Positions 11,925 to 26,905 of a stretch of 64,000 nucleotides of DNA are shown here, one piece after another. The stretch lies in contig NZ_PYFP01000001.1 in assembly GCF_003056055.1 (NCBI RefSeq), positions 434,001 to 498,000 of the forward strand, given 5' to 3'. Under the pieces are notes generated by a model. The model saw only the letters and a list, made by a program, of their open reading frames with translations, was not told where the DNA came from and did no database searches. Made by a program: the position numbers and the translations under genes. This DNA comes from Glaciimonas sp. PCH181 (GTDB lineage: Bacteria > Pseudomonadota > Gammaproteobacteria > Burkholderiales > Burkholderiaceae_D). Every line of letters begins with the position of its first letter. Positions within the stretch are counted from its first letter, which is position 1.

Positions 11925-12080
11925 ATGAGCGAAACTGCATTGCGTAATGTCGGCAACAGCCTTGCCGATTTGTGGACGTCCCGCATGGGCGTCGTCGTTA
12001 TTCATTGGACTGGCACGCCTTGCTGCCGCCAATTGAATGCTGCTGAATACAATCCTTCGATCACTTGGAGGATGGTATGA
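11925..12080 (+). CDS. Small upstream frame (51 residues) overlapping the MFS start
   Basis: An ATG at 11925 with AGAGG four bases before it opens a 51-codon frame whose TGA (12078-12080) overlaps the MFS start codon (ATGA at 12077-12080). I do not recognise the peptide. It is not hydrophobic and has a CC pair near residue 33. It may be a translational coupling leader for the transporter, or the degraded end of an older gene. It is too short for confident calling. Confidence 0.35.
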   Translation: MSETALRNVGNSLADLWTSRMGVVVIHWTGTPCCRQLNAAEYNPSITWRMV

Positions 12081-13722: not shown

Positions 13723-14487
13723 ATGACCCAAAGCACACAATTACTGGCAGGACGACGCATTTTGATTACCGGTGCTGCACGCGGACTGGGATTGGCATTC
13801 GTTACTGCTGTCGCTGAAGCTGGTGCCACCGTCGCGATGGCCGACATCCTGCACGATAGTTTGCAAGTTGCCGTGGCCGATCTTCAGCAGCGCGGTTTGA
13901 AGGTTGCAGGTTTTGCGCTTGACTTGGGCGATCCGGCATCGGTCGAGCAGTGCGCCAGCCATGCCATCGACTGGTTAGGCGGACTGGACGGATTGGTCAA
14001 CAACGCCGCCGTTACCAATTCCGGCGGCCGCACTTCTGAGCAGTTGGAAGTCGACATGTGGGACAAAGTGATGAACGTCAATGTGCGCGGTACCTGGCTG
14101 ATGACGAACGCCTGCCTGCCAGCGCTGCGTCAGTCTGGCCGTGGCAGCATCGTCAATCTGTCGTCTGACACACCGTTGTGGGGTGCGCCTAATTTGCTGG
14201 CATATGTCGCCAGTAAGGGCGCGATACTCGGCATGACGCGCTCATTGGCGCGCGAGCTGGGCGGCGATAACATCACCGTCAATGCGATAGCCCCGGGCCT
14301 GACGCTAGTCGAGGCCACCGAATACGTGCCGAAAGCACGGCATCAGGTATATCACGATCATCGTGCGATCCAGCGTGACCAGTTGCCTGAAGACGTTTGT
14401 GGCGCAGTGATTTTTGCCTTATCCGATCTATCGCGGTTTTATACCGGACAAGTCATGGCTGTCAATGGCGGCTTTGTGATGAACTAA
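13723..14487 (+). CDS. Short-chain dehydrogenase/reductase (SDR), classical
   Basis: A 254-residue classical SDR. The cofactor motif is TGAARGLG (residues 16-23), followed by an acidic residue (ADILHD) at the end of the second strand, which suggests NAD(H). NNAAV, the catalytic serine region (IVNLSSDTPLWG) and YVASKG (Tyr and Lys) are present, and the C-terminus has YTGQVMAVNGGF. It probably oxidises a hydroxyl or a cis-dihydrodiol in the pathway. It is the first gene of a run of closely spaced + strand genes reaching to 26905. Confidence 0.9.
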   Translation: MTQSTQLLAGRRILITGAARGLGLAFVTAVAEAGATVAMADILHDSLQVAVADLQQRGLKVAGFALDLGDPASVEQCASHAIDWLGGLDGLVNNAAVTNSGGRTSEQLEVDMWDKVMNVNVRGTWLMTNACLPALRQSGRGSIVNLSSDTPLWGAPNLLAYVASKGAILGMTRSLARELGGDNITVNAIAPGLTLVEATEYVPKARHQVYHDHRAIQRDQLPEDVCGAVIFALSDLSRFYTGQVMAVNGGFVMN

Positions 14488-14529
14488 TTCTCAATTTCTG
14501 GACAACTGAACACTAGCAAGGAGATAACG

Positions 14530-15069
14530 ATGACCGATTTATCCGAACAAAAGAATATCAAGCCGACGTGGGCACAAGCCGATGGCAGCAGTTTCAGCCA
14601 GTGGATGGAAACCCGCGTAGCACGCTTTTCGAGCCGTAAATACGATTGGAACGCACTAAAGTTCCAGGCAGATCACGACCCCAAATACCGCCGTGCGCAA
14701 ATGCGTTATATCGGCACCGGCGGCACCGGCGTGGCAGCGGATAGCAGCGTGATTCCGTCCGAGCATTTCACGTTTTCGACGATGATCATCCCCGCCGGTC
14801 ATGAAGGCCCGCCGCATCTACACGTCGATGTCGAGGAAGTATTTTTTATGTTGCGCGGCAAGCTCAAGCTGGTATTGGAAAAAGACGGCGAGCGTTACGA
14901 AACGATTCTGACCGAGCGCGATGTAGTGTCGATCCCGCCGGGCGTGTATCGCGAAGAAATCAATATCGGCGACGAAGATGCGTTGATGTGCGTGATGCTA
15001 GGCGCAAAAACGCCGATCACGCCAACTTATCCGCCCGATCATCCATTGGCAAAAATCAAGCGCGGCTGA
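14530..15069 (+). CDS. Cupin-domain protein
   Basis: A 179-residue single-cupin protein. Cupin motif 1 is complete (GPPHLHVDVEEVFFMLRGKL, with the His-x-His and Glu metal ligands). In motif 2 (IPPGVYREEIN) the usual histidine is replaced, so metal binding may be altered. An SD-like AAGGAG lies just before the ATG. Cupins in catabolic clusters serve as dioxygenases, isomerases or decarboxylases; the sequence does not decide. Two bases separate it from the hydrolase gene, so they are co-translated. Confidence 0.85.
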   Translation: MTDLSEQKNIKPTWAQADGSSFSQWMETRVARFSSRKYDWNALKFQADHDPKYRRAQMRYIGTGGTGVAADSSVIPSEHFTFSTMIIPAGHEGPPHLHVDVEEVFFMLRGKLKLVLEKDGERYETILTERDVVSIPPGVYREEINIGDEDALMCVMLGAKTPITPTYPPDHPLAKIKRG

Positions 15070-15070
15070 C

Positions 15071-15994
15071 ATGAACATGACAGCGCCTGTAACCACCGCC
15101 ACCGCAGAAATGCAGGAAACACTCGCCTTGCTGGATGCGCAGTTTCCAGAATCCAGTATCGATATTGACGGCAGCATAGTGTCTTATCGCAGCTGTGGCA
15201 GCGCTGTGGAAAGCGGTCGCTGTGTCGTCCTGTTGCACGGCATTGGATCGAGTGCGGCGTCGTGGTTGCAGTGTGCGTTGGCATTACCAAAAGATGTGCG
15301 AGTAATTGCCTGGAATGCGCCCGGTTATGGCAATTCGACACCGTTGCCGATGACACATCCGGCTGCAGCGGATTACGCGTTGCGGTTGCAGCAGTTATTG
15401 CAGGCCTTAGAGGTGAGTGATTGCCTGCTGGTGGGGCATTCGCTGGGCGCAATCATGGGATCGGCCTACATGGCTGCGGGTTATGGCCGGGGCCGGGTCA
15501 GGCAACTATTGCTGCTCAGTCCGGCGCAGGGCTACGGCAGCGAAGACAAGCGCCAGCGTGGGCAAGAGATGGTGCGGCAACGCTTTGATGCGCTGACGAC
15601 ATTGGGTTTGACGGGAATGGCGCAGAAAAGCCCGGAGCGGATGCTGTCGGCGCAAGCCGCCGATGCAGCCCGTGCCTGGGTGAGCTGGAATACGCAAAGT
15701 TTGCAACCGGCAGGTTATATGCAAGCGGTACAGATGCTGTGCAACGACGATATTCACCAGCATCTGGCAGTGATTGCCGGTCAATCAGCGTTGTCAACAG
15801 TACCGATAACAATGGCGGCTGCGGTATATTGCGGCGACGCCGATATTGTCACATCGCCGCAGGACAGTCGAACGCTGGCTGAGAGTTTTCAGTTGCCGTT
15901 TCAGCTAATCGACGGTGCCGGTCATGCTTGCTATATCGAGCAGCCGGAAGCAGTCGCGGCAATGCTACGTCGTCACCTTTATCAACTTTCTTGA
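15071..15994 (+). CDS. Alpha/beta hydrolase
   Basis: A 307-residue alpha/beta-fold hydrolase. The oxyanion region is VLLHGIGSSAASW, the nucleophile elbow is VGHSLGA (Ser), the acid is likely in VYCGDADIVTS and the terminal histidine is in DGAGHACYIEQPE. In ring-cleavage pathways such enzymes (the MhpC/BphD branch) hydrolyse C-C bonds of cleavage products or open lactones and enol-lactones. Here it lies beside a cupin and ahead of the IclR regulator. The substrate is not known. Confidence 0.88.
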   Translation: MNMTAPVTTATAEMQETLALLDAQFPESSIDIDGSIVSYRSCGSAVESGRCVVLLHGIGSSAASWLQCALALPKDVRVIAWNAPGYGNSTPLPMTHPAAADYALRLQQLLQALEVSDCLLVGHSLGAIMGSAYMAAGYGRGRVRQLLLLSPAQGYGSEDKRQRGQEMVRQRFDALTTLGLTGMAQKSPERMLSAQAADAARAWVSWNTQSLQPAGYMQAVQMLCNDDIHQHLAVIAGQSALSTVPITMAAAVYCGDADIVTSPQDSRTLAESFQLPFQLIDGAGHACYIEQPEAVAAMLRRHLYQLS

Positions 15995-16003
15995 GACAAG
16001 ATC

Positions 16004-16841
16004 ATGAATAAACCAGAGTTGCCAGAAGAAGAAATGCAAGAAAAATACCTCGTGCCGGGATTGGAACGCGGTTTGCGTCTGTTAAGCGAATTCAACCGTC
16101 AGGACAAAAGCTTGTCCGCACCGGAACTGGCGCGCCGTCTGAGTGTGCCGCGTTCGACCGTGTTCCGACTGTTGACTACGTTAGAACGCATGGGATTCGT
16201 CGAACGCAACGAAGGCGGTCGTGATTACCGTCTTGGCATGGCAGTACTGCGCCTGGGTTTCGAGTATCTGGCATCGCTGGAACTGACTGAAATCGGTCGG
16301 CCGCTGCTGGATCGCCTGCGTGATCAGATTTCCTATCCCTGCAATCTGGTGGTGCGCGATGGCCGTTCGATCGTGTATGTCGCCAAGTCAGTGACGCCGA
16401 CTGCTTTTGTCAGTTCGGTCAATGTCGGTACACGTTTGCCAGCGCACGCTACTGTGCTCGGTCGTGTCCTGTTGGAAGACCTGTCATTGGCGGAATTGCG
16501 CCAACTATATCCAGAAGAACATCTGGAGAGTTTTTCCAGCAACACACCTAAAACCGTCGTCGAATTATTCGACATGGTGCAGCACGATTGCAAACGCGGT
16601 TATGTATTGCAGGAAGGTTTTTTTTGAAACCGGCATTTCCACCGTCGCGGCACCGGTACGTGACCATTCCGGCAAAGTTGTGGCAGCGATGGGGGCGACG
16701 ATACCGTTGCCGCACATCGACCCTGCTCAGCTGGACGATATCGTGCGCTGCGTGCGCGAAACTGCCGGTGAATTATCCGGTTTGCTTGACCATGCTCCCG
16801 AAAAATCGGGCGGCAAGGTTGTTCACATGTGGCGGGGATAA
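16004..16841 (+). pseudogene. IclR-family regulator with +1 frameshift in a T7 run
   Basis: The first frame (16004-16627, 207 codons) encodes the IclR helix-turn-helix (LERGLRLLSEFNRQ, SAPELARRLSVPRSTVFRLL) and most of the effector domain, then stops at TGA right after seven T residues (16618-16624). In the +1 frame the protein continues without loss as FFETGISTVAAPVRDHSGKV to WRG and stops at 16841. Six T residues would restore one protein of about 278 residues, the normal IclR size. This may be a sequencing error, a real mutation, or a slippage site that yields some full-length protein. Its likely targets are the duplicated AT-rich operators at 11705 and 13500. Confidence 0.85.
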
Positions 16842-16847
16842 AACAGC

Positions 16848-17657
16848 ATGAGCATGATTCGACTTGACGGCAAGGTTGCCGTCGTTACCGGCGGCTCTTC
16901 TGGCATTGGCCTTGCCACCGCAGAATTGCTGCTAGAAGCGGGCGCGGCGGTAGCATTGTGTGGACGTAATCAAGAACGCCTGACGCAAGTCGAAGCCATG
17001 CTGCGGCTGCGTTTTCCGCAAGCCAAACTTTATTGCGCAGTATGCGATGTGCTGTCGCAAGAGCAGGTACAACAGTTCGCCGACGAGGTTGCAGAACGAC
17101 TTGGTCCGGTATCGATGCTGGTCAACAATGCAGGGCAGGGACGGGTATCGACTTTCGCCGACACTGAGGATGGCGCGTGGATGGAAGAGCTGCGCCTGAA
17201 GTTTTTCTCGGTGATTTACCCGACCCGAGCGTTCCAGCCTCAACTAGAAAAAATGGCGAAGGCGGATGGCACTGCTGCCATCGTATGCGTCAATTCACTG
17301 CTGGCGATTCAGCCCGAGCCGCACATGGTAGCGACCTCTGCCGCCCGCGCCGGTGTCCACAATCTGGTTCGTTCATTAGCTACTGAATTCAGCCCGCTGG
17401 GCATTCGCGTCAACGGCATTCTCATCGGTCTGGTGGAATCCGGGCAATGGCGACGTCGGTATGAGGCGCGTACAGAACGCGAATTATCCTGGGAACAATG
17501 GACTCAGGCACTTGCACAAAAGAAAAATATTCAACTCGGCCGTTTAGGCCATCCACAGGAAGCCGCACGCGCCATCATGTTTTTGGCGACGGCACTTTCT
17601 TCGTACACAACAGGCAGTCATATTGACGTTTCAGGAGGACTTTCTCGCCATGCCTAA
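16848..17657 (+). CDS. SDR-fold oxidoreductase with non-canonical active site
   Basis: A 269-residue SDR. The cofactor site is normal (TGGSSGIGLATA, then CGRNQERL with Arg, which suggests NADP(H)), as are NNAGQG and the C-terminal TGSHIDVSGG. The catalytic Tyr-x-x-x-Lys is absent: the aligned segment reads VATSAARAGVHNL, so Thr163 and Arg167 occupy these places. An SDR subgroup with this ATSAAR segment exists (from memory). It overlaps the start of the ThDP enzyme gene by eight bases. It might be an atypical reductase, or act without hydride transfer to a carbonyl. Confidence 0.85.
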   Translation: MSMIRLDGKVAVVTGGSSGIGLATAELLLEAGAAVALCGRNQERLTQVEAMLRLRFPQAKLYCAVCDVLSQEQVQQFADEVAERLGPVSMLVNNAGQGRVSTFADTEDGAWMEELRLKFFSVIYPTRAFQPQLEKMAKADGTAAIVCVNSLLAIQPEPHMVATSAARAGVHNLVRSLATEFSPLGIRVNGILIGLVESGQWRRRYEARTERELSWEQWTQALAQKKNIQLGRLGHPQEAARAIMFLATALSSYTTGSHIDVSGGLSRHA

Positions 17658-19362
17658 TAAAACCAAAACCATCCATCAGGTTACTGTCGGCTGCGCCATC
17701 GCAGCCTTTCTCGAACAGTGCAATGTCAAGGCGGCCTTCGGCGTCATTTCGATTCACAACATGCCGATTCTTGACGCTTTCGGTGAACGCGGCAAGATTC
17801 GTTTCGTGATGTCGCGCGGCGAAGCTGGCGGCGCTAACATGGCCGATGCGTATGCTCGCACTACCGGCGGTCTGGGCGTTTGCCTGACCAGCACCGGCAC
17901 TGCTGCAGGCAATGCTGCCGGTGCCATGGTTGAAGCATTGACCGCCGGTACGCCGCTGCTGCATCTGACCGGCCAGATCGAGACGCCTTATCTGGATCAG
18001 AGTCTGTCTTATATCCATGAAGCGCCGGATCAACTGACCATGCTCAAAGCGATTTCGAAGGCAGCATTCCGCGTGCGCAGCATCGATACCGCGATCAGCA
18101 CCATCAAACTGGCGGTGCAAACTGCGCTGACACCGCCGATGGGGCCGGTCAGTGTCGAGATTCCGATTGACATTCAGGCAGCCTTGATTCCGATGCCGTC
18201 GGATTTGCGACCATTGCCGATTCCATCCAATACGCCATCGGCGCATGCGCTGGATGAACTGGCCGCACGACTGGTCAAAGCCAAGCGGCCAATGCTGTGG
18301 GTGGGCGGTGGTGCACGCCATGCCAGCAAGCAAGTTAAACGTCTGCTTGATATGGGTTTCGGCCTGGTCACCACCACGCAAGGTCGCGGTATTGTGCCGG
18401 AAGACGATCCGCGTTCGCTGGGTGCTTTCAACTTGCATAAACCGGTCGAGAATTTTTACCAGACTTGTGATGCAGTCGTTGTAGTGGGTTCGCGCCTGCG
18501 CGGCAATGAAACCTTAAAGTACGAGCTGAAATTACCGCAAGCCCGTTATCGCATCGATGCTGATCCAGCTGCCGAAGGCCGTTGCTATAACAGTGATTAT
18601 TTCGTCTGCGGTGATGCTGCACTGGCGCTGGATGGTTTAGCAGATCGATTGCAGGAGTTGAAATCGCTAGACGTCGATCCGACATTTATCGGTGATTTGC
18701 AAAAGGCGCGTGAAAGCGCGTTGCATGGTCTGATCGATGGGCTGGGTCCTTACAGCGCGTTAGTCGAACAGTTGCAAAAAGCTGCCGGGCGCAATTTCAA
18801 TTGGGTGCGTGATGTTACTGTCTCCAACAGCACCTGGGGCAATCGTTATCTGCGGATTTTCGATCCACTGGCAGGCGTGCATGCGCTCGGCGGCGGTATC
18901 GGACAAGGTTTGGCGATGGGCATCGGCGCGGCGGTCGGCGCAGCGGTGACGGCATCGGGGAAAAAGACTTTCTGTCTGGCCGGTGATGGTGGTTTTATCC
19001 TGAATCTGGGCGAGCTGGCAACGGCCGTGCAAGAACGTGCCGATATGGTCATCGTCCTGATGAACGACCAGAGTTACGGGGTCATCAAGAATATTCAAGA
19101 TGCGCAATACGGCGGTCGTCGCCACTACGTTGAATTGCATACGCCGGATTACGCACTGTTATCGCAGTCGTTACGTCTGCGTCATACCCGCATCAGCGAT
19201 CTGGCCGATATCGAGAAAGGATTACGTATGGCGTTGGCCGAGCCGGGTCCGTTCATGCTGGAAATCGACATGTTATCGATCGGTAAATTTAAAACCGCTT
19301 TCGCGGGGCCACCGGTGAATGAAGAAAAAGTCGCAGAAAAATCCATCGCCACGGTAGCTTGA
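17650..19362 (+). CDS. Thiamine diphosphate-dependent enzyme (acetolactate synthase/decarboxylase-like)
   Basis: A 570-residue three-domain ThDP protein. The N-terminal PYR domain has the activating glutamate region (RFVMSRGEAGGANMADAYAR) and GVCLTSTGTAAGNAAG. A central domain (MLWVGGGARHA) follows, and the C-terminal PP domain has the Mg/ThDP motif starting at GDGGFILNLGEL and ending in VLMNDQSYG. The start at 17650 follows AGGAGG (17633-17638). Family members decarboxylate 2-oxo acids or join them to aldehydes. In this island it could decarboxylate a 2-oxo acid formed after ring cleavage. It is followed by aspartate dehydrogenase after 10 bases. Confidence 0.9.
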   Translation: MPNKTKTIHQVTVGCAIAAFLEQCNVKAAFGVISIHNMPILDAFGERGKIRFVMSRGEAGGANMADAYARTTGGLGVCLTSTGTAAGNAAGAMVEALTAGTPLLHLTGQIETPYLDQSLSYIHEAPDQLTMLKAISKAAFRVRSIDTAISTIKLAVQTALTPPMGPVSVEIPIDIQAALIPMPSDLRPLPIPSNTPSAHALDELAARLVKAKRPMLWVGGGARHASKQVKRLLDMGFGLVTTTQGRGIVPEDDPRSLGAFNLHKPVENFYQTCDAVVVVGSRLRGNETLKYELKLPQARYRIDADPAAEGRCYNSDYFVCGDAALALDGLADRLQELKSLDVDPTFIGDLQKARESALHGLIDGLGPYSALVEQLQKAAGRNFNWVRDVTVSNSTWGNRYLRIFDPLAGVHALGGGIGQGLAMGIGAAVGAAVTASGKKTFCLAGDGGFILNLGELATAVQERADMVIVLMNDQSYGVIKNIQDAQYGGRRHYVELHTPDYALLSQSLRLRHTRISDLADIEKGLRMALAEPGPFMLEIDMLSIGKFKTAFAGPPVNEEKVAEKSIATVA

Positions 19363-19372
19363 GGAGAATGAC

Positions 19373-20179
19373 ATGCTGCATGTTTCAATGATCGGTTGTG
19401 GTGCCATCGGCATCGGCGTGATGGAGTTGCTGAAAAGCGACCCGGAAGTCGCTTTCGATATGGTCATCGTACCCGAGGCGCATATGGAAGCGGCGCGTCC
19501 GGTCGTGTTTTCACTGGCACCGCATGCGCGTGTTGTCAATCGGCTGGAAGAACGGGGAGATCGTCCTGACCTGCTGATCGAGTGTGCTGGGCATCGCGCT
19601 ATCGAGGAGCACATCATTCCTGCATTGAAACGCGGTATTCCTTGCATGGTTGTTTCTATCGGTGCGTTGTCTGAGCTGGGCTTGGTAGAGCGGCTGGAAG
19701 CGGCAGCCCGCGAAGGCAAGACCCAGGTACAACTGCTATCAGGCGCAATCGGTGCGATCGATGCCTTATCGGCAGCGCGTGTCGGCGGCCTTGATTCCGT
19801 CATCTACACCGGACGTAAACCACCGGCAGCATGGAAGGACACGCCAGCCGATGGTTTATTCGATCTCGATAATTTGCAAACCGCTACCGTCATTTTTGAA
19901 GGCACGGCACGCGAGGCCGCACGTCTGTATCCAAAAAATGCCAACGTCGCCGCGACCTTATCGTTAGCCGGTCTGGGACTGGATCACACGCAGGTGCGCT
20001 TGCTGGCCGATCCCGGTGTCACCGAGAACGTGCATCACGTTGAGGCCAAAGGCGAGTTTGGCGGTTTTGAATTGACCATGCGCGGCAAGCCTCTCGCTGC
20101 GAATCCTAAAACCTCCGCGTTGACCGTATTCAGTGTGGTACGTGCGCTTGGCAATCGCGCCCACGCTTTATCTATTTGA
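19373..20179 (+). CDS. L-aspartate dehydrogenase family protein
   Basis: A 268-residue NAD(P)-dependent protein of the aspartate dehydrogenase (NadX-like) family. It has a Rossmann motif (MIGCGAIGIGV), ECAGHRAIEEHI, VSIGAL, and the family's C-terminal domain (PKNANVAATLSLAGLGLDHTQV, EFGGFELTMRGKPLAANPKTS). The characterised reaction is reversible L-aspartate + NAD(P)+ to iminoaspartate/oxaloacetate + ammonia. In a catabolic island with RidA it may instead reduce or form an imino acid intermediate. The AGGAG ribosome site is clear and the gene sits in the middle of the operon. Confidence 0.88.
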   Translation: MLHVSMIGCGAIGIGVMELLKSDPEVAFDMVIVPEAHMEAARPVVFSLAPHARVVNRLEERGDRPDLLIECAGHRAIEEHIIPALKRGIPCMVVSIGALSELGLVERLEAAAREGKTQVQLLSGAIGAIDALSAARVGGLDSVIYTGRKPPAAWKDTPADGLFDLDNLQTATVIFEGTAREAARLYPKNANVAATLSLAGLGLDHTQVRLLADPGVTENVHHVEAKGEFGGFELTMRGKPLAANPKTSALTVFSVVRALGNRAHALSI

Positions 20180-20191
20180 GTGAAGAGTGAC

Positions 20192-21685
20192 ATGAGTGAC
20201 TTGAACGACATGAATCCAAATGAGACATTGCCGATCTGCATCGCAGGAAACTGGCGTTTGGGACAAGGCGATCGCTATGCTAGCTTGTATCCCGCCACTG
20301 GCGAACCGATTGCGTGGCTAAACGCCGCCAGCATCGCCGACGTGGAAGAAGCGATTGCTGGTGCCGATCACGCCTTCCGCACCAGCGGCTGGGCGCAGCG
20401 CAAGCCGCATGAACGGGCAACGGTGCTGCATCGCGTCGCCCAGTTGATCCGCGATCAGTCGGAATATCTGGCGCAGCGCCAACGTCTGGACAACGGCAAG
20501 CCGATTACCGAAACGCGCGCATTGGTGGCCAGCGCCGCGAACACTTTCCAGTTCTTTGCCGCTGCTTGCGAAACATTGGAAGACACCATTACGCCGATGC
20601 GGGGCGACAACCTGACGATGAGCGTATATGAACCCATGGGCGTGGTCGCCGCCATCACACCCTGGAACTCGCCAATCGCTAGCGAGGCGCAGAAGATGGC
20701 CCCTGCGCTGGCCGCTGGCAATGCCGTGGTTGTCAAGCCAGCCGAAGTAACGCCGTTAATGGCGCTGGAGCTGGCCAGAATTTGTGAGGAAGCCGGTGTT
20801 CCCAAGGGACTAATCAGTGTATTGCCGGGCAAGGGTTCAATAATTGGTGACGCCATCACGCTGCATCCGCTGGTACGGCGTGTATCGTTCACTGGCGGCA
20901 CCACTACCGGCAAACATATTGCCCACATTGCTGCTGACAAAATGATGCCGGTATCGTTGGAGTTGGGCGGAAAATCACCCACGATGGTGTTCGAAGATGC
21001 TGATCTGGAACATGCGGTGGCGGGTGTCTTGTACGGGATTTTCAGTTCGTCCGGCGAGTCTTGTATAGCCGGTTCGCGCTTGTTTGTTGCCCGTGGTATT
21101 TACGAACATTTTATTGAAAGACTCGCTGCCGGGGCTGCGGCTTTACGCGTTGGCGATCCAGCCGATGAACGTACGCAGTTGGGACCATTGATTACTCCGC
21201 GTCATCGTGATTCGATTGAATCGTATGTGGCGATGGGCGTCGAAGACGGCGGCCAGATTCGTACCGGCGGTATGCGTCCAGAAGGTAAATTATTCGAACG
21301 CGGAAATTACTATCTTCCAACCATCATCGAAGGCCTGACCAACGAACAACGCATTTGCCAGGAAGAGATTTTTGGACCGGTATTGGTGGCGATGCCCTTC
21401 GATAACGAAGAAGATTTGATCGCGCAGGCGAACGACAGTGTTTACGCATTGGCGGCGGGCATCTGGACTCGCGACTATAAAAAAGCCTGGCGCTTTGGTC
21501 GCGCAGTGCAAGCCGGGAATGTCTGGATCAATACCTATAAGCAACTATCGATTTCAACCCCGTTCGGCGGTTGGCGTGATAGTGGGCTAGGGCGCGAAAA
21601 AGGACGGCTGGGAATTTTGCAATACATGGAGCAAAAGAGCATGTATTGGGGTTTGAATGAACAACCGTTACCGTGGGCAGGCTGA
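20192..21685 (+). CDS. Aldehyde dehydrogenase (NAD(P)+-dependent, ALDH superfamily)
   Basis: A 497-residue ALDH. It has the PWNSPI motif, the general-base Glu257 (LELGGKSP) and the catalytic Cys291 (SSGESCIAGSRL), then EEIFGPVL and the C-terminal PFGGWRDSGLGREKG. It most resembles the branch with 2-hydroxy- and 2-aminomuconic semialdehyde and betaine aldehyde dehydrogenases. An extradiol-type ring-cleavage gene follows directly, so a muconic semialdehyde-type substrate is plausible. I use the ATG at 20192; a GTG at 20180 immediately after the preceding stop is an alternative. Confidence 0.92.
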   Translation: MSDLNDMNPNETLPICIAGNWRLGQGDRYASLYPATGEPIAWLNAASIADVEEAIAGADHAFRTSGWAQRKPHERATVLHRVAQLIRDQSEYLAQRQRLDNGKPITETRALVASAANTFQFFAAACETLEDTITPMRGDNLTMSVYEPMGVVAAITPWNSPIASEAQKMAPALAAGNAVVVKPAEVTPLMALELARICEEAGVPKGLISVLPGKGSIIGDAITLHPLVRRVSFTGGTTTGKHIAHIAADKMMPVSLELGGKSPTMVFEDADLEHAVAGVLYGIFSSSGESCIAGSRLFVARGIYEHFIERLAAGAAALRVGDPADERTQLGPLITPRHRDSIESYVAMGVEDGGQIRTGGMRPEGKLFERGNYYLPTIIEGLTNEQRICQEEIFGPVLVAMPFDNEEDLIAQANDSVYALAAGIWTRDYKKAWRFGRAVQAGNVWINTYKQLSISTPFGGWRDSGLGREKGRLGILQYMEQKSMYWGLNEQPLPWAG

Positions 21686-21740
21686 GCGGGTTTGCGGTAA
21701 TGACGGACTAGTAACCAAGGGTAGTGCGAGGAGACGCAAC

Positions 21741-22706
21741 ATGGATGTATTAGGTATTGATGAAATTACATACGGCGCCGACGATTTGCCGTTGTGTAAG
21801 CAATTTTTTTCCGACTGGGGTATGACGCTCGCGGAAGAGACTGAACAGGTGTTGGTATTCGTAACGCAAAACGGTTGTCGGGTAGTCGTCAAACACAGCG
21901 ACGACCCCGACTTGCCACCAGCAATCGAAGCAGGGCCGACGTTGCGTGAAGTAGTCTGGGGTGTATCGGCACAAGAAGTTTTGGAACGTTTTGCTGGGCG
22001 GATTGCAGCCATGCCCGGTTATGTAAATCAAGGCACACGAATTGGCTGTACGGATCCAAACGGTCTGGCGGTGCGCTTTCAGGTCACACAAAAACGCGAG
22101 ATCGATCTCGAATGTGCGGAAATGAATACCTGGTCGCATAAACATCGCATCAACCAGCGCAGCCCGGCATACGAAAGCGCCGCGCCGATTGAAGTCGGCC
22201 ACGTAGTGTTTTTTGTCAAAGATGTAAAAGCGTGTGAAAGCTTTTATTGCGACAATTTCGGCTTCGTGCCGTCCGATCATTATCCGGGCCGTGGCGCTTT
22301 CTTGCGCTGTGCCGCAGATGGCGGTCATCACGATATTTTTCTGTTGCAACCGCCCGAGCCGCGCGCCGGATTGAATCATGTCGCATTCACCGTACGTGAT
22401 ATCCATGAAGTCTTTGGCGGCGGCTTGCACATGTCGCGCAAAGGCTGGGACACGCAACTCGGCCCCGGTCGCCATCCGATTTCATCGGCTTATTTTTGGT
22501 ACTTCCGTAATCCCGCAGGCGGCCTGATTGAGTACTACGCCGATGAAGATCAGCTTAACGAAGAATGGCAGCCACGCGATTTCGAACCGGGCCCGACGGT
22601 GTTCGCCGAATGGGCGATCGACGGTGGCATTGACGGCAATACCCGCCGTCAAAAAAATGCCGATGCTCCCAGTGGCAAGTTTCTGACCGACCGCGCTAAA
22701 TCCTGA
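21741..22706 (+). CDS. VOC-fold protein, probable extradiol ring-cleavage dioxygenase
   Basis: A 321-residue two-domain vicinal-oxygen-chelate protein. Domain 2 keeps the type I extradiol 2-His-1-Glu metal set: His in VGHVVFFVKDV, His in LNHVAFTVRDI and Glu in GLIEYYADED, with a conserved tyrosine in AYFWYFRNPAGG. I start it at 21741, which has GAGGAG twelve bases before the ATG and places the first VOC strand at the N-terminus. Upstream in-frame sequence overlaps the ALDH gene and is less likely. It probably opens a catechol-, hydroxypyridine- or aminophenol-type ring between two carbons. Confidence 0.87.
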   Translation: MDVLGIDEITYGADDLPLCKQFFSDWGMTLAEETEQVLVFVTQNGCRVVVKHSDDPDLPPAIEAGPTLREVVWGVSAQEVLERFAGRIAAMPGYVNQGTRIGCTDPNGLAVRFQVTQKREIDLECAEMNTWSHKHRINQRSPAYESAAPIEVGHVVFFVKDVKACESFYCDNFGFVPSDHYPGRGAFLRCAADGGHHDIFLLQPPEPRAGLNHVAFTVRDIHEVFGGGLHMSRKGWDTQLGPGRHPISSAYFWYFRNPAGGLIEYYADEDQLNEEWQPRDFEPGPTVFAEWAIDGGIDGNTRRQKNADAPSGKFLTDRAKS

Positions 22707-22720
22707 TACGAGGTAATTCC

Positions 22721-23866
22721 ATGTCTGCATTAAAAATCGGTATTCTCGGCGGCGGCATCGGCGGTTTGACTGCGGCGATTGCGTTGCATCGCGCCGGTCA
22801 TGACGTCGTCGTGTACGAGCAATCCAAGCAGTTCCTGCGCGTTGGCGCGGATATTAATCTGACCCCGAACGCGGTACGTGCGCTGGACGGACTGGGCATA
22901 GGCGAAGCGGTCCGTCGTACCGCAGCACGGCCGACACATCGCATCAGCCGGACCTGGGATAGCGGCGCGGAAACCTCTCGTCTCGAAATGGGCGATACCG
23001 CCGAAAAGAAATATGGCGCACCGCAGTTGACGATACATCGCGCCGATCTGCTGGCAGCGCTAGCAGAAATATTTCCTGCGGAACGTGTGAGGTTTGCAAA
23101 GCGCGCCGAAACGATCTCGCAGGAAGATCAAGGCATCGTTCTAGCATTTACCGATGGCAGCACCGATAAAGTGGATGTACTGATCGGCGGCGACGGCATT
23201 CACTCGGCAGTCCGCAGCGCGATGTTTGGTGCGGAAAGTCCGCGCTTTACCGGCGTGGTGGCGTTCCGTGCGGTGATTCCGGCTAACAGTGTTGCCGATG
23301 TCCCGAACCTGCAGGCATTCACAAAATGGTGGGGGCCCAATCCAGAAAGCCAGATCGTCACTTTTCCACTGAATCGCGGCAAGGATATTTTTATCTTCGC
23401 TACAACGGCACAAGAAACCTGGCATCTGGAATCATGGACGACTCCCGGCAGTGTGCAGGAATTGCGCGATAGTTACGCCGATTTTCATGGTGATGCGCGG
23501 GCTTTGCTGGATGCCTGCGATGAAGTCTTGAAGACCGCCTTGTATGAACGCGATCCTTTGCCGCATTGGTCCAAGGGCAATATGACGCTGCTAGGTGATG
23601 CCTGCCATCCGATGATGCCATTCATGGCGCAAGGCGCTGGTATGGCGATCGAAGATGCGGTGGTATTAGCGCGTTGTCTGGCAAATGCCACGACGTTGGC
23701 GGCGGTTGCCGATGCCTTGCAGTGCTATCAAGAACTGCGTCTGGAACGTACCAGCAAGATCCAGATAGGTTCGCGTGGCAATAATTGGCTGCGTGATGGC
23801 GGCAATGCCGATTGGGTCTACGGCTATGACGCGTGGACGGTGCCGCTGGAAACCGAAACGGTGTAA
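22721..23866 (+). CDS. FAD-dependent aromatic monooxygenase (NicC/salicylate hydroxylase-like)
   Basis: A 381-residue class A flavoprotein monooxygenase. It has the GxGxxG dinucleotide motif (GILGGGIGGLTAA, residues 6-18), the DG motif (VLIGGDGIHSAVR) and the GD motif (MTLLGDACHPMMPFMAQGAG). The general family para- or ortho-hydroxylates aromatic acids; close relatives include salicylate hydroxylase and 6-hydroxynicotinate 3-monooxygenase. It follows the VOC dioxygenase by 14 bases, consistent with hydroxylation to give the substrate for ring cleavage. Confidence 0.9.
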   Translation: MSALKIGILGGGIGGLTAAIALHRAGHDVVVYEQSKQFLRVGADINLTPNAVRALDGLGIGEAVRRTAARPTHRISRTWDSGAETSRLEMGDTAEKKYGAPQLTIHRADLLAALAEIFPAERVRFAKRAETISQEDQGIVLAFTDGSTDKVDVLIGGDGIHSAVRSAMFGAESPRFTGVVAFRAVIPANSVADVPNLQAFTKWWGPNPESQIVTFPLNRGKDIFIFATTAQETWHLESWTTPGSVQELRDSYADFHGDARALLDACDEVLKTALYERDPLPHWSKGNMTLLGDACHPMMPFMAQGAGMAIEDAVVLARCLANATTLAAVADALQCYQELRLERTSKIQIGSRGNNWLRDGGNADWVYGYDAWTVPLETETV

Positions 23867-23869
23867 ATC

Positions 23870-24196
23870 ATGACTGCACAGCCACAGACAATGTTGCTGA
23901 CCGTACTGCTGAAGCACGATCAGACAAAGAACCTGGAGCAAATCCAGGACCACATGAAAAGTGTCGATTGGTGGGAACGTTTTCCTGTGGCGGGCACGCG
24001 TGTGGTGTCGTGGACGGTGGCGATGGGATTGGGCCAGATCGTTACTCTGGAACTGCCGCCGTCGCTGCTGCCGCAGGTGAATGTCGAACTCGAACGTTCG
24101 GCCTGGGGTGTGTTTCGCACCGAATGTTATCCCACTTACGATTTTGTACCTGTGCGTGAGCGTATTCGCGAACGCGTAAACAATGGAGGCCAATAA
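23870..24196 (+). CDS. Small conserved-looking protein of unknown function, 108 residues
   Basis: I do not recognise a firm family. The protein has a beta-rich start (MLLTVLLKHDQ), WWERFP near residue 35, VVSWTVAMGLGQIVTLELPP in the middle and an Arg-rich C-terminus. The pattern (about 100 residues, alternating hydrophobic strands) resembles dimeric alpha-beta barrel or muconolactone-isomerase-sized proteins, but this is a guess. It starts four bases after the monooxygenase stop, and its TAA overlaps the next ATG (TAATG), so it is a true member of the operon. Confidence 0.75.
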   Translation: MTAQPQTMLLTVLLKHDQTKNLEQIQDHMKSVDWWERFPVAGTRVVSWTVAMGLGQIVTLELPPSLLPQVNVELERSAWGVFRTECYPTYDFVPVRERIRERVNNGGQ

Positions 24197-24429
24197 TGAG
24201 CGAATTAAGGCAGGAAGTTTATCTCAACCCACATCAGGCGCGCCGCCGCCCACCGACCCCGTATGAAGATTTGCTGGGCGATTCTATTGAGCGTGCGTTT
24301 GCCGCAGGCATTCACGATCTTGAAGGTTTAGTGGCGCATCTGAATCGCACCGGCCCCGGTTGCCTGCAAAACGAAGGCGTCTGGACCGAAGCCCTGTATC
24401 AGGAAGAAATGACAAGACTGGCTGCTTGA
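24196..24429 (+). CDS. Small protein of unknown function, 77 residues
   Basis: It is coupled to the preceding gene by TAATG. The sequence is rich in charged residues with a Pro-rich segment (ARRRPPTPYEDLLGDSIERA) and predicted helices (LEGLVAHLNRTG, WTEALYQEEMTRLAA). Short proteins of this look near Rieske oxygenases are sometimes annotated as recombinase-like helix-turn-helix domain proteins (from memory, unverified). There is no signal sequence and there are no cysteines in a binding pattern. It could be an accessory or assembly factor of the oxygenase. Confidence 0.7.
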   Translation: MSELRQEVYLNPHQARRRPPTPYEDLLGDSIERAFAAGIHDLEGLVAHLNRTGPGCLQNEGVWTEALYQEEMTRLAA

Positions 24430-24457
24430 GCAGACCAATCCATTCAGGAGAGTAGTG

Positions 24458-25495
24458 ATGAGAACAATAGCCAATGACCCAGTGGAAGCAGTCCTTGCCG
24501 CTGGTTTGAAAGATTTGTGGTATCCGATTTGCCCATCCGAATTTGTTGCCGAGCGGCCAGTCTCGCTGCGACGTCTGGGCAAAAAATTTGTGCTCTGGCG
24601 AGAAGCTTCAGGCAAGCTGCATGCACTCGAAGATCATTGCCCGCATCGTGGCGCACCCTTGTCGATGGGGATCGCCATGGGCGACCGTATCGCTTGCGGT
24701 TATCACGGCGTGCAAGTGCGTTTCGATGGCGTCGTCACCAGCGTACCGGGAAGCCCGGGATGCAAGCTGGAAGGTGCAAAGGCAACGCGTTCATTCCATG
24801 TGCAAGAGGCCTGCGGCGCGATTTTTCTTTATAACTCTACCGTCAATGTCGACCAGCCGCCGCCGTTGCGCTTGCCCGAGGAGTTGACCAGCGATGAGTA
24901 TTCTCACTTCCTTTGCTATACCGAGTGGAAGGGCGGTTATCGCTATGTCACCGACAACGTCATGGATCCGATGCACGGTACTTTCCTGCATAAGCAATCG
25001 CACTCGATGGCCGAGGGCGATAACACGGCGACCTTCCGCGTGCGCGAAACCGATCTCGGCTTTGTGTTCGAAAAAGAAGGCCAGCGCGGCGTTAATTTCG
25101 ATTGGACCGAATGGGCCGATACCGGTCTGCATTGGATGCGCCTGGCGATTCCGTATCCAAAAACGGGCGGTCCCGGCGGCAGTTTTTTCATTATCGGCAG
25201 CTATACCCCGATTACCGATAACGTTGCCGCAGTATTCCATTGGCGTTGCCGCAAGCTAAGCGGTTGGCAACGCGATACCTGGCGCTTCCTGTATCGGAAT
25301 CGTCTGGAAGCGCGCCATTGGACTGTGCTGGAGCAAGATCGCGTGGTGTTGGAAATGATGGAGCCGGATGCCAATCAACGTGAAATGCTGTACCAGCACG
25401 ACATGGGGTTGGTGCGCTGGCGTCGCCATATGCGCAATCTTGCTAAGGAACAATTGGAAAGAGAAGACGCAGCGGCTCCTACGAAGGCAGCGTGA
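24458..25495 (+). CDS. Rieske non-heme iron oxygenase, VanA-type
   Basis: A 345-residue oxygenase component. The Rieske [2Fe-2S] ligands are Cys61-x-His63 (CPHRG) and Cys80-x2-His83 (CGYHG). The mononuclear iron site is in DNVMDPMHGTFLHKQSH (Asp, His, His). Size and layout match the single-component VanA/phthalate-dioxygenase group, which works with a VanB-type reductase; that reductase is encoded two genes later at 25955. AGGAG precedes the start. It may hydroxylate the ring or remove an O- or N-methyl group from the substrate entering the pathway. Confidence 0.93.
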   Translation: MRTIANDPVEAVLAAGLKDLWYPICPSEFVAERPVSLRRLGKKFVLWREASGKLHALEDHCPHRGAPLSMGIAMGDRIACGYHGVQVRFDGVVTSVPGSPGCKLEGAKATRSFHVQEACGAIFLYNSTVNVDQPPPLRLPEELTSDEYSHFLCYTEWKGGYRYVTDNVMDPMHGTFLHKQSHSMAEGDNTATFRVRETDLGFVFEKEGQRGVNFDWTEWADTGLHWMRLAIPYPKTGGPGGSFFIIGSYTPITDNVAAVFHWRCRKLSGWQRDTWRFLYRNRLEARHWTVLEQDRVVLEMMEPDANQREMLYQHDMGLVRWRRHMRNLAKEQLEREDAAAPTKAA

Positions 25496-25908
25496 ACAAG
25501 ATGTCTAGAGTCCGGCATGTGAAGACTGACCAGGTGCCGGAATCTGCATCGGGCACCTGGTCCAATTGTCTGGTTATCGGCAACGAAGTAGTGATGTCAG
25601 GCATGACCGCACATCCTGCTTCACGTGATGCGACGCTGGATACTTACGCGCAGACATTGGTGGTACTGGGTAAGTTGCGTGATCTGGTGGAAGCCGCTGG
25701 CGGATCGCTCGGCAGCATCTACAAGTTGGTCATTTATGTGAAAGATATCGGCGACAAGGATGAAGTAGGGCGAGCACGCCGCGACTTCTTCCGGGCACCG
25801 TATCCCTGTTCAACGCTGGTGCAAGTCAGTGGGCTGGTATTTCCCGAACTGACCGTCGAGATTGATGCCTTTGCGCGGTTGGACATTGATTTACAGGCTG
25901 TGGAATAA
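25492..25908 (+). CDS. RidA-family (YjgF/YER057c/UK114) protein
   Basis: A 138-residue RidA-like protein (WSNCLVIGNEVVMSGMT, TYAQTLVVLGKLRDLVEAAGG, VIYVKDI, PCSTLVQVSGLVFPELTVEIDAFA). RidA proteins hydrolyse reactive enamines/imines; some relatives are 2-aminomuconate deaminases in aromatic catabolism. I start it at the GTG at 25492, which overlaps the Rieske stop (GTGA) and has GAAGG four bases before it; an ATG at 25501 is possible. Together with the aspartate dehydrogenase it is the strongest hint that the pathway substrate contains nitrogen. Confidence 0.9.
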   Translation: MNKMSRVRHVKTDQVPESASGTWSNCLVIGNEVVMSGMTAHPASRDATLDTYAQTLVVLGKLRDLVEAAGGSLGSIYKLVIYVKDIGDKDEVGRARRDFFRAPYPCSTLVQVSGLVFPELTVEIDAFARLDIDLQAVE

Positions 25909-25954
25909 GCCACCGCTTTGCAATGCGTTTGTATAAGTTCGGTATGAGGTTTTT

Positions 25955-26905
25955 ATGAGTAATTCTCTGATTTCGGTGCGGGTTCAGGCCATGCGCTTCG
26001 AAGCAAAAGGTATCGTCAGCGTAGAGCTGGTGGCGCTAGACGACGCTGACTTGCCGCCGTTTGAGGCCGGTTCGCATGTCGATCTCCATTTAGGTAACGG
26101 TATTGTGCGCAGCTATTCATTATTGAACGCGCCGACGGAGCGCCATCGCTACGTAGTTGGCGTGCTGAACGATCGCAACAGCCGTGGCGGTTCGCGTTAT
26201 GTGCATGAGCAGTTGCGGGTCGGTTCCAGTATCACCATTTCCGCACCGCGAAATAATTTTGCGCTCGATGCATCTGCACGCCACTCGGTGTTGATTGCTG
26301 GCGGCATCGGTATCACGCCGATCTCCTGCATGCTGAATCAACTGCGCAGTCAGGACAAATCGGCAGAGCTACTGTATTGCGCCAGATCGCGCAGCGAAGC
26401 GGCTTTTAGTACGTTGCTGTTGCAGCAGGCGGGTGTCACCGGTCATTTCGACGACGAACAAGGCGCACCGCCAGATTTGCGCGCCTATCTGGCAAGCAAG
26501 CCGAAGGACGCGCATTTCTATTGCTGCGGCCCGACCCCAATGCTGAATGCATTCGAAGCCATATGCGACGAACTCGGGCTGCCAAACGTCCATATCGAGC
26601 GCTTCGCTGCCGCTGAAAATGTTGAAGCGGTGCAAAGCGACGCTTACGTTGCAGAGCTTGCGCGCAGTAAAAAAACCATCTCTGTGCCAGCTGGAAAATC
26701 GTTACTGGATGCGCTGTTGGACGCTGGTCTGGAGATAGAGCATAGCTGCCGCGAAGGCGTGTGCGGTTCTTGCGAGACACGCGTGCTGGAAGGCGAACCG
26801 GAACATCGCGACGGCGTGCTCAGCAAAAGCGAACGGGCATCAAACAAGATGATGATGGTCTGCGTGTCGGGCTGCAAGGGACGGCGGCTGGTACTCGATT
26901 TGTAG
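25955..26905 (+). CDS. VanB/PDR-type oxidoreductase (FMN, NAD, plant-type [2Fe-2S])
   Basis: A 316-residue reductase with an N-terminal flavin domain (RSYSLLNAP), an NAD domain (VLIAGGIGITPISCMLNQL, YCCGPTPML) and a C-terminal plant-type ferredoxin domain (HSCREGVCGSCETRVLEG and MMVCVSGCKG, four cysteine ligands). This order is that of phthalate dioxygenase reductase/VanB. It should pass electrons from NADH to the Rieske oxygenase at 24458. It is the last enzyme gene of the operon and is followed by an intrinsic terminator. Confidence 0.93.
   Translation: MSNSLISVRVQAMRFEAKGIVSVELVALDDADLPPFEAGSHVDLHLGNGIVRSYSLLNAPTERHRYVVGVLNDRNSRGGSRYVHEQLRVGSSITISAPRNNFALDASARHSVLIAGGIGITPISCMLNQLRSQDKSAELLYCARSRSEAAFSTLLLQQAGVTGHFDDEQGAPPDLRAYLASKPKDAHFYCCGPTPMLNAFEAICDELGLPNVHIERFAAAENVEAVQSDAYVAELARSKKTISVPAGKSLLDALLDAGLEIEHSCREGVCGSCETRVLEGEPEHRDGVLSKSERASNKMMMVCVSGCKGRRLVLDL

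What the first reader, a model, noticed from the sequence alone, without database searches (positions are those of the whole stretch)
13723..26905. Large conserved-looking catabolic island with unknown, probably nitrogen-containing aromatic substrate
It combines a Rieske oxygenase with VanB-type reductase, FAD hydroxylase, extradiol VOC dioxygenase, semialdehyde-type ALDH, RidA, aspartate dehydrogenase, ThDP enzyme, cupin, two SDRs, hydrolase and IclR regulator. I recall a similar gene set, including aspartate dehydrogenase, in Pseudomonas aeruginosa around PA3498-PA3511, but know no firm substrate. RidA with AspDH points to an amino or imino intermediate. This is the best candidate in the window for an undescribed pathway.
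Basis: partly seen in the sequence, partly recalled or inferred. Interest (0 to 1): 0.75.

Follow-up and report, generated by a model that had tools for sequence, protein, structure and literature searches.

The report
Candidate kynurenate-degradation operon
A 15-gene bacterial operon, conserved in many Burkholderia relatives and also found in Klebsiella and Acinetobacter, most likely breaks down kynurenic acid (a product of tryptophan) or a close relative; the chemistry of that pathway was described in the 1960s, and I found no paper that names its genes.

Summary
One small HTH_62 gene (24196-24429) was missed, and IclR is frameshifted. Among 92 related loci nine enzymes form the core: VanA-type Rieske oxygenase, two SDRs, VOC extradiol dioxygenase, ThDP decarboxylase, ALDH, cupin, alpha/beta hydrolase and aspartate dehydrogenase; all nine are found in 68 of 92, in several gene orders. 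FAD hydroxylase, RidA and a 108-aa protein are accessory. In some genomes the core splits into an upper (Rieske, SDR, VOC, ThDP, ALDH) and a lower module (cupin, hydrolase, AspDH). A conserved xanthine-dehydrogenase-type molybdenum hydroxylase lies near or in the cluster in three genera. The upper module matches, step for step, the classical kynurenate route, whose genes I did not find in print. The lower module can open the remaining pyridine ring and release its nitrogen as iminosuccinate, the AspDH substrate; atoms balance. I favour kynurenate/quinaldate catabolism at 0.55. The substrate is inferred; no enzyme was assayed.

The parts
12077..13384 (+). MFS transporter, probable uptake of the substrate
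   Evidence: MFS_1; also directly upstream of the cluster in Collimonas L005-L007; 19 of 92 loci
13723..14487 (+). SDR1; proposed cis-dihydrodiol dehydrogenase (inferred)
   Evidence: adh_short_C2 E 1.7e-55; directly follows the Rieske gene in L103, L104, L116, L117; in 76 of 92 loci
14530..15069 (+). Cupin; proposed ring-opening dioxygenase of the pyridine intermediate (hypothesis)
   Evidence: Cupin_2; H96, H98, E102, E103 invariant in 21 and 23 sequences, Arg141 where cupins usually have the third His; best solved relative by sequence quercetinase QueD E 1.9e-5; 72 of 92 loci
15071..15994 (+). alpha/beta hydrolase; proposed amide hydrolase after ring opening (hypothesis)
   Evidence: Abhydrolase_6; GHSLGA motif conserved in 50 sequences; 71 of 92 loci
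16004..16841 (+). IclR-family regulator, frameshifted at a poly-T tract near 16620 (first frame stops at 16627)
   Evidence: IclR_C and HTH_IclR on the first frame; continuation in another frame; median ORF of 87 IclR-family copies in related loci 278 codons
16848..17657 (+). SDR2; proposed enone reductase (inferred)
   Evidence: NCBIfam NF005468 446 bits vs cut-off 266; 87 of 92 loci
17650..19362 (+). ThDP enzyme; proposed 2-oxo acid decarboxylase (inferred)
   Evidence: three TPP_enzyme domains; NF005470 909.9 bits vs cut-off 495; closest solved relatives are acetolactate synthases; 89 of 92 loci
19373..20179 (+). L-aspartate dehydrogenase; takes iminosuccinate/aspartate
   Evidence: NF009827 491.7 bits vs cut-off 226; AspDHs of Delftia, Klebsiella, P. 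aeruginosa and R. eutropha are described enzymes (PMC5554190 passages); 78 of 92 loci
20180..21685 (+). Aldehyde dehydrogenase; proposed to oxidise the aldehyde left by the ThDP enzyme (inferred)
   Evidence: Aldedh E 6.9e-166; 91 of 92 loci
21741..22706 (+). VOC-family extradiol dioxygenase; proposed cleavage of the dihydroxylated benzenoid ring (inferred)
   Evidence: Glyoxalase PF00903; 2-His-1-Glu ligands H155, H214, E265 invariant in 21 sequences (numbering of the 322-aa translation from 21738)
22721..23866 (+). FAD hydroxylase (accessory), NicC-like but unlikely to be NicC by its residues
   Evidence: closest solved protein 6-hydroxynicotinate 3-monooxygenase E 1.6e-81; two NicC histidines align with Asn and Phe; 19 of 92 loci, in L067, L076 and L078 outside the operon
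23870..24196 (+). 108-aa protein of unknown family (accessory)
   Evidence: no Pfam or NCBIfam match; 29 of 92 loci, 28 at a stricter threshold, all 28 with RidA
24196..24429 (+).
   Evidence: PF20552 E 4e-30; matched in 76 of 92 loci
24458..25495 (+). VanA-type Rieske oxygenase; proposed 7,8-dioxygenase (inferred)
   Evidence: Rieske and VanA_C; model pLDDT 80.7; best Foldseek E-value to carbazole 1,9a-dioxygenase 7.8e-19; 88 of 92 loci
25492..25908 (+). RidA-family protein (accessory); proposed helper for iminosuccinate hydrolysis
   Evidence: Ribonuc_L-PSP; 29 of 92 loci
25955..26905 (+). VanB/PobB-type reductase (flavin, NAD, C-terminal 2Fe-2S)
   Evidence: Fer2 and NAD_binding_1; 76 of 92 loci; a ferredoxin plus FAD oxidoreductase instead in other loci
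27095..28180 (+). Porin, probably part of the unit
   Evidence: Porin_4; found in 33 of 92 loci

Best explanation
The operon degrades kynurenic acid (4-hydroxyquinoline-2-carboxylate). In genera with the neighbouring molybdenum hydroxylase it may also take quinoline-2-carboxylate (quinaldate).

Upper module (benzenoid ring): the Rieske oxygenase with its reductase makes the 7,8-dihydrodiol. One SDR oxidises it to 7,8-dihydroxykynurenate. The VOC enzyme cleaves it to 5-(3-carboxy-3-oxopropenyl)-4,6-dihydroxypicolinate. The other SDR reduces the side-chain double bond. The ThDP enzyme removes CO2 from the resulting 2-oxo acid, and the aldehyde dehydrogenase gives 5-(2-carboxyethyl)-4,6-dihydroxypicolinate.

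Lower module (pyridine ring): the cupin cleaves the ring between C4 and C5 like a beta-dicarbonyl dioxygenase. The hydrolase splits the resulting 2-oxoglutaryl amide into 2-oxoglutarate and aminofumarate/iminosuccinate. Aspartate dehydrogenase turns that into aspartate; RidA, where present, speeds its hydrolysis to oxaloacetate and ammonia.

Shown here: gene content, conservation, module split, enzyme families, VOC metal ligands, atom balance of the scheme. Inferred: substrate and order of steps. Hypothesis: the cupin and hydrolase reactions.
For: All nine core enzymes are found in 68 of 92 loci; each has one place in the scheme, with none left over. Every step balances. A ThDP decarboxylase plus ALDH after an extradiol cleavage is what the classical kynurenate intermediates require (names recalled from KEGG/EC).

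The core separates at the boundary between the two rings. In four Pigmentiphaga genomes and Alcaligenaceae bacterium SAGV5, cupin and AspDH are absent from the VOC locus but sit about 2 kb apart elsewhere; in the two that I fetched the block reads cupin-hydrolase-IclR-AspDH. In Delftia that block has its own IclR beside the upper module.

AspDH needs a nitrogen on a carbon carrying COOH, as in the pyridine-2-carboxylate half. AspDHs from genera with this cluster are described enzymes.

A molybdenum hydroxylase with large subunits 64-79% identical to the reference lies downstream in nine Cupriavidus loci and one Ramlibacter, and in a Rieske-ThDP-VOC run in Caballeronia NK8. Quinaldate 4-oxidoreductase is of this type (recalled).

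Best fold match of the Rieske model by E-value: carbazole 1,9a-dioxygenase. Tryptophan dioxygenase is in 40 of 50 cluster genomes against 34 of 200 genomes of the order.
Against: No enzyme or growth test was done. None of the neighbour families that I annotated makes kynurenate from kynurenine; rarer neighbours were not annotated. The window's own genome has no tryptophan dioxygenase, nor do 10 of the 50 cluster genomes, including six of the seven Herbaspirillum examined. The tryptophan dioxygenase contrast is confounded by genus and genome size.

SDR1 is missing from the Pigmentiphaga-type and Novosphingobium loci, so two SDRs may not be needed. The Rieske enzyme's relatives include demethylases and monooxygenases; guaiacol demethylase 7qwt has a slightly higher TM-score (0.72) than the top-ranked carbazole dioxygenase (0.70). 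The cupin has Arg at the usual third-His place, and its fold search was not specific. The ThDP enzyme's closest solved relatives are acetolactate synthases, not decarboxylases. The molybdenum hydroxylase is in only 11 of 92 loci.

P. aeruginosa strain CHA secretes kynurenic acid, and a kynU mutant reaches 100 uM at 24 h (PMC4938989 passages). If that strain has the cluster, it is not removing all kynurenate under those conditions. PMC5554190 could not reproduce the reported activity of the R. eutropha AspDH.
Confidence: 0.55

Rival explanations
1. The pathway has the same logic but its main natural substrate is another fused-ring azaarene carboxylate (for example xanthurenate, a methoxylated quinaldate or another quinoline/quinoxaline acid), not kynurenate.
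For: The core fits any bicyclic N-heteroaromatic acid that leaves an iminosuccinate unit. The accessory FAD hydroxylase (19 of 92) next to VOC could hydroxylate a phenolic quinoline such as xanthurenate. The lumichrome operon uses a similar toolkit of ThDP decarboxylase, xanthine oxidase, Rieske and extradiol enzymes on a quinoxaline (PMC12746152).
Against: The mapping to the classical kynurenate intermediates is complete without extra steps; FAD hydroxylase (19 of 92) and the three-subunit molybdenum hydroxylase (11 of 92) are absent from most of the loci examined.
Confidence: 0.22
2. A meta-cleavage pathway for a one-ring amino-aromatic (2-aminophenol, 3-hydroxyanthranilate or aminobenzoate type), with RidA as the 2-aminomuconate deaminase.
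For: VOC dioxygenase, semialdehyde-like ALDH and RidA are all in the window; HpaE and 2-hydroxymuconic semialdehyde dehydrogenase models are among the best for the ALDH, below cut-off.
Against: RidA is in only 29 of 92 loci. No FAH-type hydratase/decarboxylase or tautomerase was found among the cluster proteins of the window. ThDP enzyme, cupin and second SDR have no role.
Confidence: 0.1
3. A lignin-type aromatic pathway (VanA/VanB-like O-demethylation, then meta cleavage); AspDH is only anaplerotic.
For: The Rieske protein matches VanA_C, and guaiacol demethylase 7qwt is among its structural neighbours with TM-score 0.72.
Against: AspDH is kept in 78 of 92 loci and travels with cupin and hydrolase as a separate operon. 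A molybdenum hydroxylase neighbour points to an N-heterocycle.
Confidence: 0.06
4. A pyridine or nicotinate route, with the FAD hydroxylase as 6-hydroxynicotinate 3-monooxygenase.
For: Closest solved relative is NicC; in L067, L076 and L083 a two-subunit molybdenum hydroxylase lies downstream of the cluster, with a related FAD hydroxylase beyond it in L067 and L076.
Against: The FAD hydroxylase was not found in 73 of 92 loci; two NicC histidines align with Asn and Phe here; a Rieske oxygenase and extradiol cleavage are not part of the nic route (recalled).
Confidence: 0.04

Closest known systems
Classical kynurenate pathway of Pseudomonas extracts (Hayaishi and co-workers, 1960s; one 1961 title seen in a reference list, intermediates and the other papers recalled)
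   Same: An enzyme family is present for each described intermediate: ring dioxygenase, dihydrodiol dehydrogenase, extradiol dioxygenase, enone reductase, 2-oxo acid decarboxylase, aldehyde dehydrogenase; glutamate, alanine and acetate as end products (recalled) would fit 2-oxoglutarate plus aspartate/oxaloacetate
   Different: That pathway was defined by metabolites and extracts; I know of no assigned genes. The cupin/hydrolase/AspDH lower half is my proposal
Lumichrome (riboflavin) catabolic operon lum of Nocardioides simplex (PMC12746152; abstract and first part of Methods and Results read)
   Same: Uses ThDP-dependent decarboxylation, a xanthine oxidase, a Rieske dioxygenase and an extradiol dioxygenase on a fused N-heterocycle
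   Different: 25-gene operon with P450 and six putative hydrolases, alpha/beta Rieske subunits, two-protein ThDP enzyme; the parts read mention no aspartate dehydrogenase or cupin
2-Aminophenol / 3-hydroxyanthranilate meta pathway (amn/nba type, recalled)
   Same: Extradiol cleavage, semialdehyde dehydrogenase, RidA-family deaminase
   Different: Needs the RidA-type deaminase and a hydratase/aldolase; has no ThDP enzyme, cupin, Rieske or AspDH
Nicotinate (nic) pathway (recalled)
   Same: NicC-like FAD hydroxylase; molybdenum hydroxylases near some clusters
   Different: Starts without a Rieske oxygenase; two NicC histidines not conserved in the window protein
Carbazole 1,9a-dioxygenase (Rieske component)
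   Same: Best Foldseek E-value for the Rieske model; acts on an N-heteroaromatic
   Different: 21% identity in the fold alignment; other Rieske oxygenases score nearly as well

Membership tests
Classical kynurenate pathway | Ring-hydroxylating oxygenase plus electron carrier | tested here: met
   Families present: Rieske in 88 and VanB-type reductase in 76 of 92 loci, ferredoxin plus FAD oxidoreductase in others; reaction not assayed
Classical kynurenate pathway | Extradiol dioxygenase with intact metal site | tested here: met
   H155, H214, E265 invariant in 21 sequences
Classical kynurenate pathway | 2-oxo acid decarboxylase followed by aldehyde dehydrogenase | tested here: inconclusive
   ThDP enzyme in 89 and ALDH in 91 of 92 loci, but the ThDP protein's closest solved relatives are acetolactate synthases and no reaction was assayed
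Classical kynurenate pathway | Two NAD(P) reductases/dehydrogenases (dihydrodiol, enone) | tested here: inconclusive
   SDR2 in 87 but SDR1 in 76 of 92 loci; SDR1 missing in Pigmentiphaga-type and Novosphingobium loci
Classical kynurenate pathway | Growth on, and turnover of, kynurenate | not testable with these tools
   needs culture and enzyme work
Quinaldate route | Molybdenum hydroxylase linked to the cluster | tested here: inconclusive
   11 of 92 loci in three genera, large subunits 64-79% identical to the reference, some matched only in part; none in the window
2-Aminophenol-type meta pathway | RidA-type 2-aminomuconate deaminase always present | tested here: not met
   RidA in 29 of 92 loci
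2-Aminophenol-type meta pathway | Hydratase/decarboxylase of the FAH family and aldolase | tested here: not met
   no such family among the window cluster proteins
Nicotinate pathway (NicC) | NicC substrate-binding histidines | tested here: not met
   His to Asn and His to Phe in the alignment to 5eow; their role in NicC is recalled
Aspartate dehydrogenase | Passes the curated family cut-off | tested here: met
   NF009827 491.7 bits against 226
VanAB O-demethylase | Demethylation of an aryl methyl ether | not testable with these tools
   VanA_C domain present but shared by other Rieske oxygenases

The most novel reading that the evidence does not exclude
The operon is the missing genetic basis of bacterial kynurenate mineralisation and supplies sequences for its long-described enzymes. 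Its lower half is an undescribed pyridine-ring opening: a cupin cuts a 4,6-dihydroxypicolinate as if it were a beta-dicarbonyl, and a hydrolase and aspartate dehydrogenase then deliver the ring nitrogen directly as aspartate alongside 2-oxoglutarate. The same unit in Klebsiella pneumoniae and Acinetobacter baumannii would let these bacteria consume a host signalling metabolite.
Probability: 0.4. Interest if true: 0.78.

Novelty: new variant of a known kind. Interest (0 to 1): 0.62.

Why it matters
If right, it gives genes to a tryptophan-related pathway whose chemistry was described over 60 years ago (recalled; I know of no sequence assigned to EC 1.13.11.10, 1.14.99.2 or 1.3.1.18, and a search for these numbers gave nothing relevant). 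It offers a physiological role for the aspartate dehydrogenases of many bacteria. It predicts a new way to open a pyridine ring. Kynurenic acid is a neuroactive and immune-modulating metabolite, so a widespread bacterial sink, also present in Klebsiella pneumoniae and Acinetobacter baumannii records, would matter for host-microbe metabolism. The claim is directly testable with a few gene deletions and enzyme assays.

Tried and rejected
Substrate ideas dropped: one-ring amino-aromatics (RidA accessory, ThDP and cupin unexplained); nicotinate (FAD hydroxylase accessory, NicC histidines replaced); lignin-type demethylation (AspDH and lower module unexplained).

Tried without gain: promoter and terminator scan (fewer hits than in shuffles); Rfam (no match); cupin fold search (generic cupins, model pLDDT 66.9); tryptophan dioxygenase as a neighbour marker (not on the VOC contig in the three genomes where I compared contigs, G411, G421 and G438; frequency contrast confounded); six distant VOC relatives at 32-39% identity: no nine-enzyme cluster around L107-L109 and L112, while L110 and L111 were unreadable with my ORF scorer; ten literature searches, the cap, several with capped lists (30 of 67, 20 of 64, 40 of 560, 25 of 165 shown). 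P. aeruginosa PAO1 itself could not be fetched by name.

Selection to bear in mind: the 92 loci are the 80 best of 529 VOC relatives plus 12 that I picked from other searches; identity thresholds and the ORF caller were mine. For tryptophan dioxygenase I gave 50 of the 80 loci. For the lower module I gave 11 genomes. Only the commoner neighbour families were annotated.


Full report
What is in the sequence. Two details were missed. A 77-aa HTH_62 protein lies at 24196-24429, its start overlapping the end of the preceding gene. The IclR gene is frameshifted at a poly-T tract near 16620; the remainder continues in another frame to 16841. Whether that is real or a sequencing error cannot be told here. 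An MFS gene upstream and a porin gene downstream keep their places in Collimonas relatives. Promoter and terminator scans gave fewer hits than shuffles, and Rfam gave none.

Conservation. A scan of one genome per species found 529 relatives of the VOC protein; the best 80 loci were kept. I added 12 loci from other searches, giving 92. All nine core enzymes (Rieske, SDR1, VOC, SDR2, ThDP, ALDH, cupin, hydrolase, AspDH) are found in 68 of 92. Single counts: VOC 92 (the query), ALDH 91, ThDP 89, Rieske 88, SDR2 87, IclR 87, AspDH 78, reductase 76, SDR1 76, cupin 72, hydrolase 71. Accessory: RidA 29, 108-aa protein 29, FAD hydroxylase 19. Many of the 24 incomplete loci are on short or cut contigs or are split clusters (below); L020, L045, L082, L115 and L118 lack genes without a full excuse of that kind. 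The HTH_62 gene is matched in 76 of 92.

The cluster is patchy. A VOC relative at E 1e-30 is in 15 of 398 genomes of the phylum, nine with a best match of 49% identity or more and six at 32-39%; at E 1e-60 it is in 12 of 145 of the family and 3 of 25 of the genus of Pseudomonas jinjuensis. Besides P. jinjuensis itself, the other two of those three have the window's 14 genes in the same order (L153, L154). Named carriers of the full nine include Klebsiella pneumoniae (L117, between speB and an M48 peptidase/tkt) and Acinetobacter baumannii (L116), both in records listed as plasmids.

Modules. Gene order varies while content stays. In four Pigmentiphaga genomes and Alcaligenaceae bacterium SAGV5 the cupin, hydrolase, AspDH and SDR1 genes are missing from the VOC locus. 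In the two I fetched, the block reads cupin-hydrolase-IclR-AspDH (L140, L144). In Delftia the same block, with its own IclR, stands just before SDR1-IclR-SDR2-ThDP (L145) and on to ALDH-VOC-Rieske-reductase (L047). So there is an upper unit (Rieske, SDR, VOC, ThDP, ALDH) and a lower unit (cupin, hydrolase, AspDH).

Electron transfer also varies: a VanB-type reductase here; a non-heme iron oxygenase ferredoxin plus an FAD-dependent oxidoreductase in Klebsiella, Acinetobacter and Caballeronia; the Pfam domains of two such proteins from other loci are a Rieske ferredoxin and a ferredoxin-reductase-type flavoprotein.

Neighbours. A three-subunit xanthine-dehydrogenase-type hydroxylase with a CoxG-like protein lies roughly 2-8 kb downstream of the cluster in nine Cupriavidus loci and one Ramlibacter, and in a ferredoxin-HTH_62-Rieske-ThDP-VOC-hydroxylase run in Caballeronia NK8: 11 of 92 loci, some seen only in part. 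Large subunits are 64-79% identical to the reference across these three genera. Enzymes of this type hydroxylate N-heterocycles; quinaldate 4-oxidoreductase, which makes kynurenate, is one (recalled). A different, two-subunit type lies by L067, L076 and L083. The window's genome has such hydroxylases, but none in the window. Uptake systems are diverse: NMT1/THI5-like ABC, MFS, TctC, porins.

Enzymes. The VOC protein keeps its 2-His-1-Glu ligands. The Rieske model (pLDDT 80.7) has its best Foldseek E-value to carbazole 1,9a-dioxygenase, with guaiacol demethylase and others close. AspDHs of Delftia sp. Cs1-4, K. pneumoniae, P. aeruginosa and R. eutropha JMP134 are described enzymes, although the authors could not reproduce the reported activity of the R. 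eutropha one (PMC5554190, passages read); I did not confirm that each is the cluster copy. The cupin keeps HxH and Glu but has Arg at the usual third-His place. The FAD hydroxylase is closest to 6-hydroxynicotinate 3-monooxygenase but differs at two of its histidines. The ThDP enzyme's closest solved relatives are acetolactate synthases.

Interpretation. The classical kynurenate route runs kynurenate, 7,8-dihydrodiol, 7,8-dihydroxykynurenate, oxopropenyl-, oxopropyl-, formylethyl- and carboxyethyl-4,6-dihydroxypicolinate (recalled from KEGG and EC entries; [quoted passage not shown] Each step can be given one upper-module enzyme or SDR. The lower module can finish the job: cleaving C4-C5 of the remaining ring with O2, then hydrolysing the amide, yields 2-oxoglutarate and iminosuccinate, and AspDH takes the latter. 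All steps balance. This explains AspDH, which a benzene-only pathway does not. The cupin and hydrolase reactions are my hypothesis.

Against. No assay; tryptophan dioxygenase is absent from the window's genome and from 10 of 50 cluster genomes, and its frequency of 40 of 50 against 34 of 200 genomes of the order is confounded by genus. SDR1 is not universal. P. aeruginosa CHA secretes kynurenic acid, and its kynU mutant accumulates it (PMC4938989, passages read).

Literature. Ten searches of the held library listed no paper that assigns genes to kynurenate degradation. Several lists were capped and the library lacks most subscription journals, so novelty is not proven. The lumichrome operon paper (PMC12746152; abstract and outline, first part of the Methods and Results section) shows a similar enzyme toolkit on another fused N-heterocycle. 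Text searches within the Delftia PS-11 and C. necator JMP134 genome papers gave no mention of kynurenine compounds.

Verdict. A real, conserved, patchily distributed and probably horizontally exchanged catabolic operon. Kynurenate/quinaldate is the best-supported substrate (0.55), another fused azaarene acid the main rival (0.22).

Noticed in passing
window 16004-16841: IclR regulator frameshifted at a poly-T tract; relatives have a longer ORF (median 278 codons of 87 copies). Could be real loss of control or a sequencing error.
   Followed up: partly
window 9391-10551: A D-threonine aldolase / 3-hydroxy-D-aspartate aldolase-like gene; a 51% identical relative lies just downstream of the cluster in Delftia L047, L055 and L056, in L047 next to another RidA-family gene.
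   Followed up: partly
L115: Caballeronia sp. NK8 has a second partial copy (Rieske, ThDP, VOC) followed by molybdenum hydroxylase genes on pNK84, besides the full cluster on pNK83 (L120).
   Followed up: partly
L155 (same genus as the window): Another species of the window's genus carries a much more diverged cluster (VOC 62%, Rieske 55%), while the three other species of the genus listed in that sample have no VOC relative at E 1e-60: suggests horizontal exchange.
   Followed up: no
L142 4038-16990: Pigmentiphaga region with a distant AspDH (48%), another molybdenum hydroxylase (31% to the Cupriavidus one) and two distant cupins (36%): possibly a sister pathway for another heterocycle.
   Followed up: no
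window 23870-24196: 108-aa protein with no Pfam or NCBIfam match; all 28 loci that have it at the stricter threshold also have RidA. Function unknown.
   Followed up: no
PA3505 in PMC9732424: A Tn-seq paper lists PA3505 (the P. aeruginosa AspDH locus, as recalled) as predicted essential in three of four host-like media, under nicotinate metabolism in a table and pyrimidine biosynthesis in the text (passages).
   Followed up: no
window 30345-31631: EpsL outer-membrane protein of XrtB/PEP-CTERM-associated polysaccharide systems (NCBIfam hit), unrelated to the finding.
   Followed up: no
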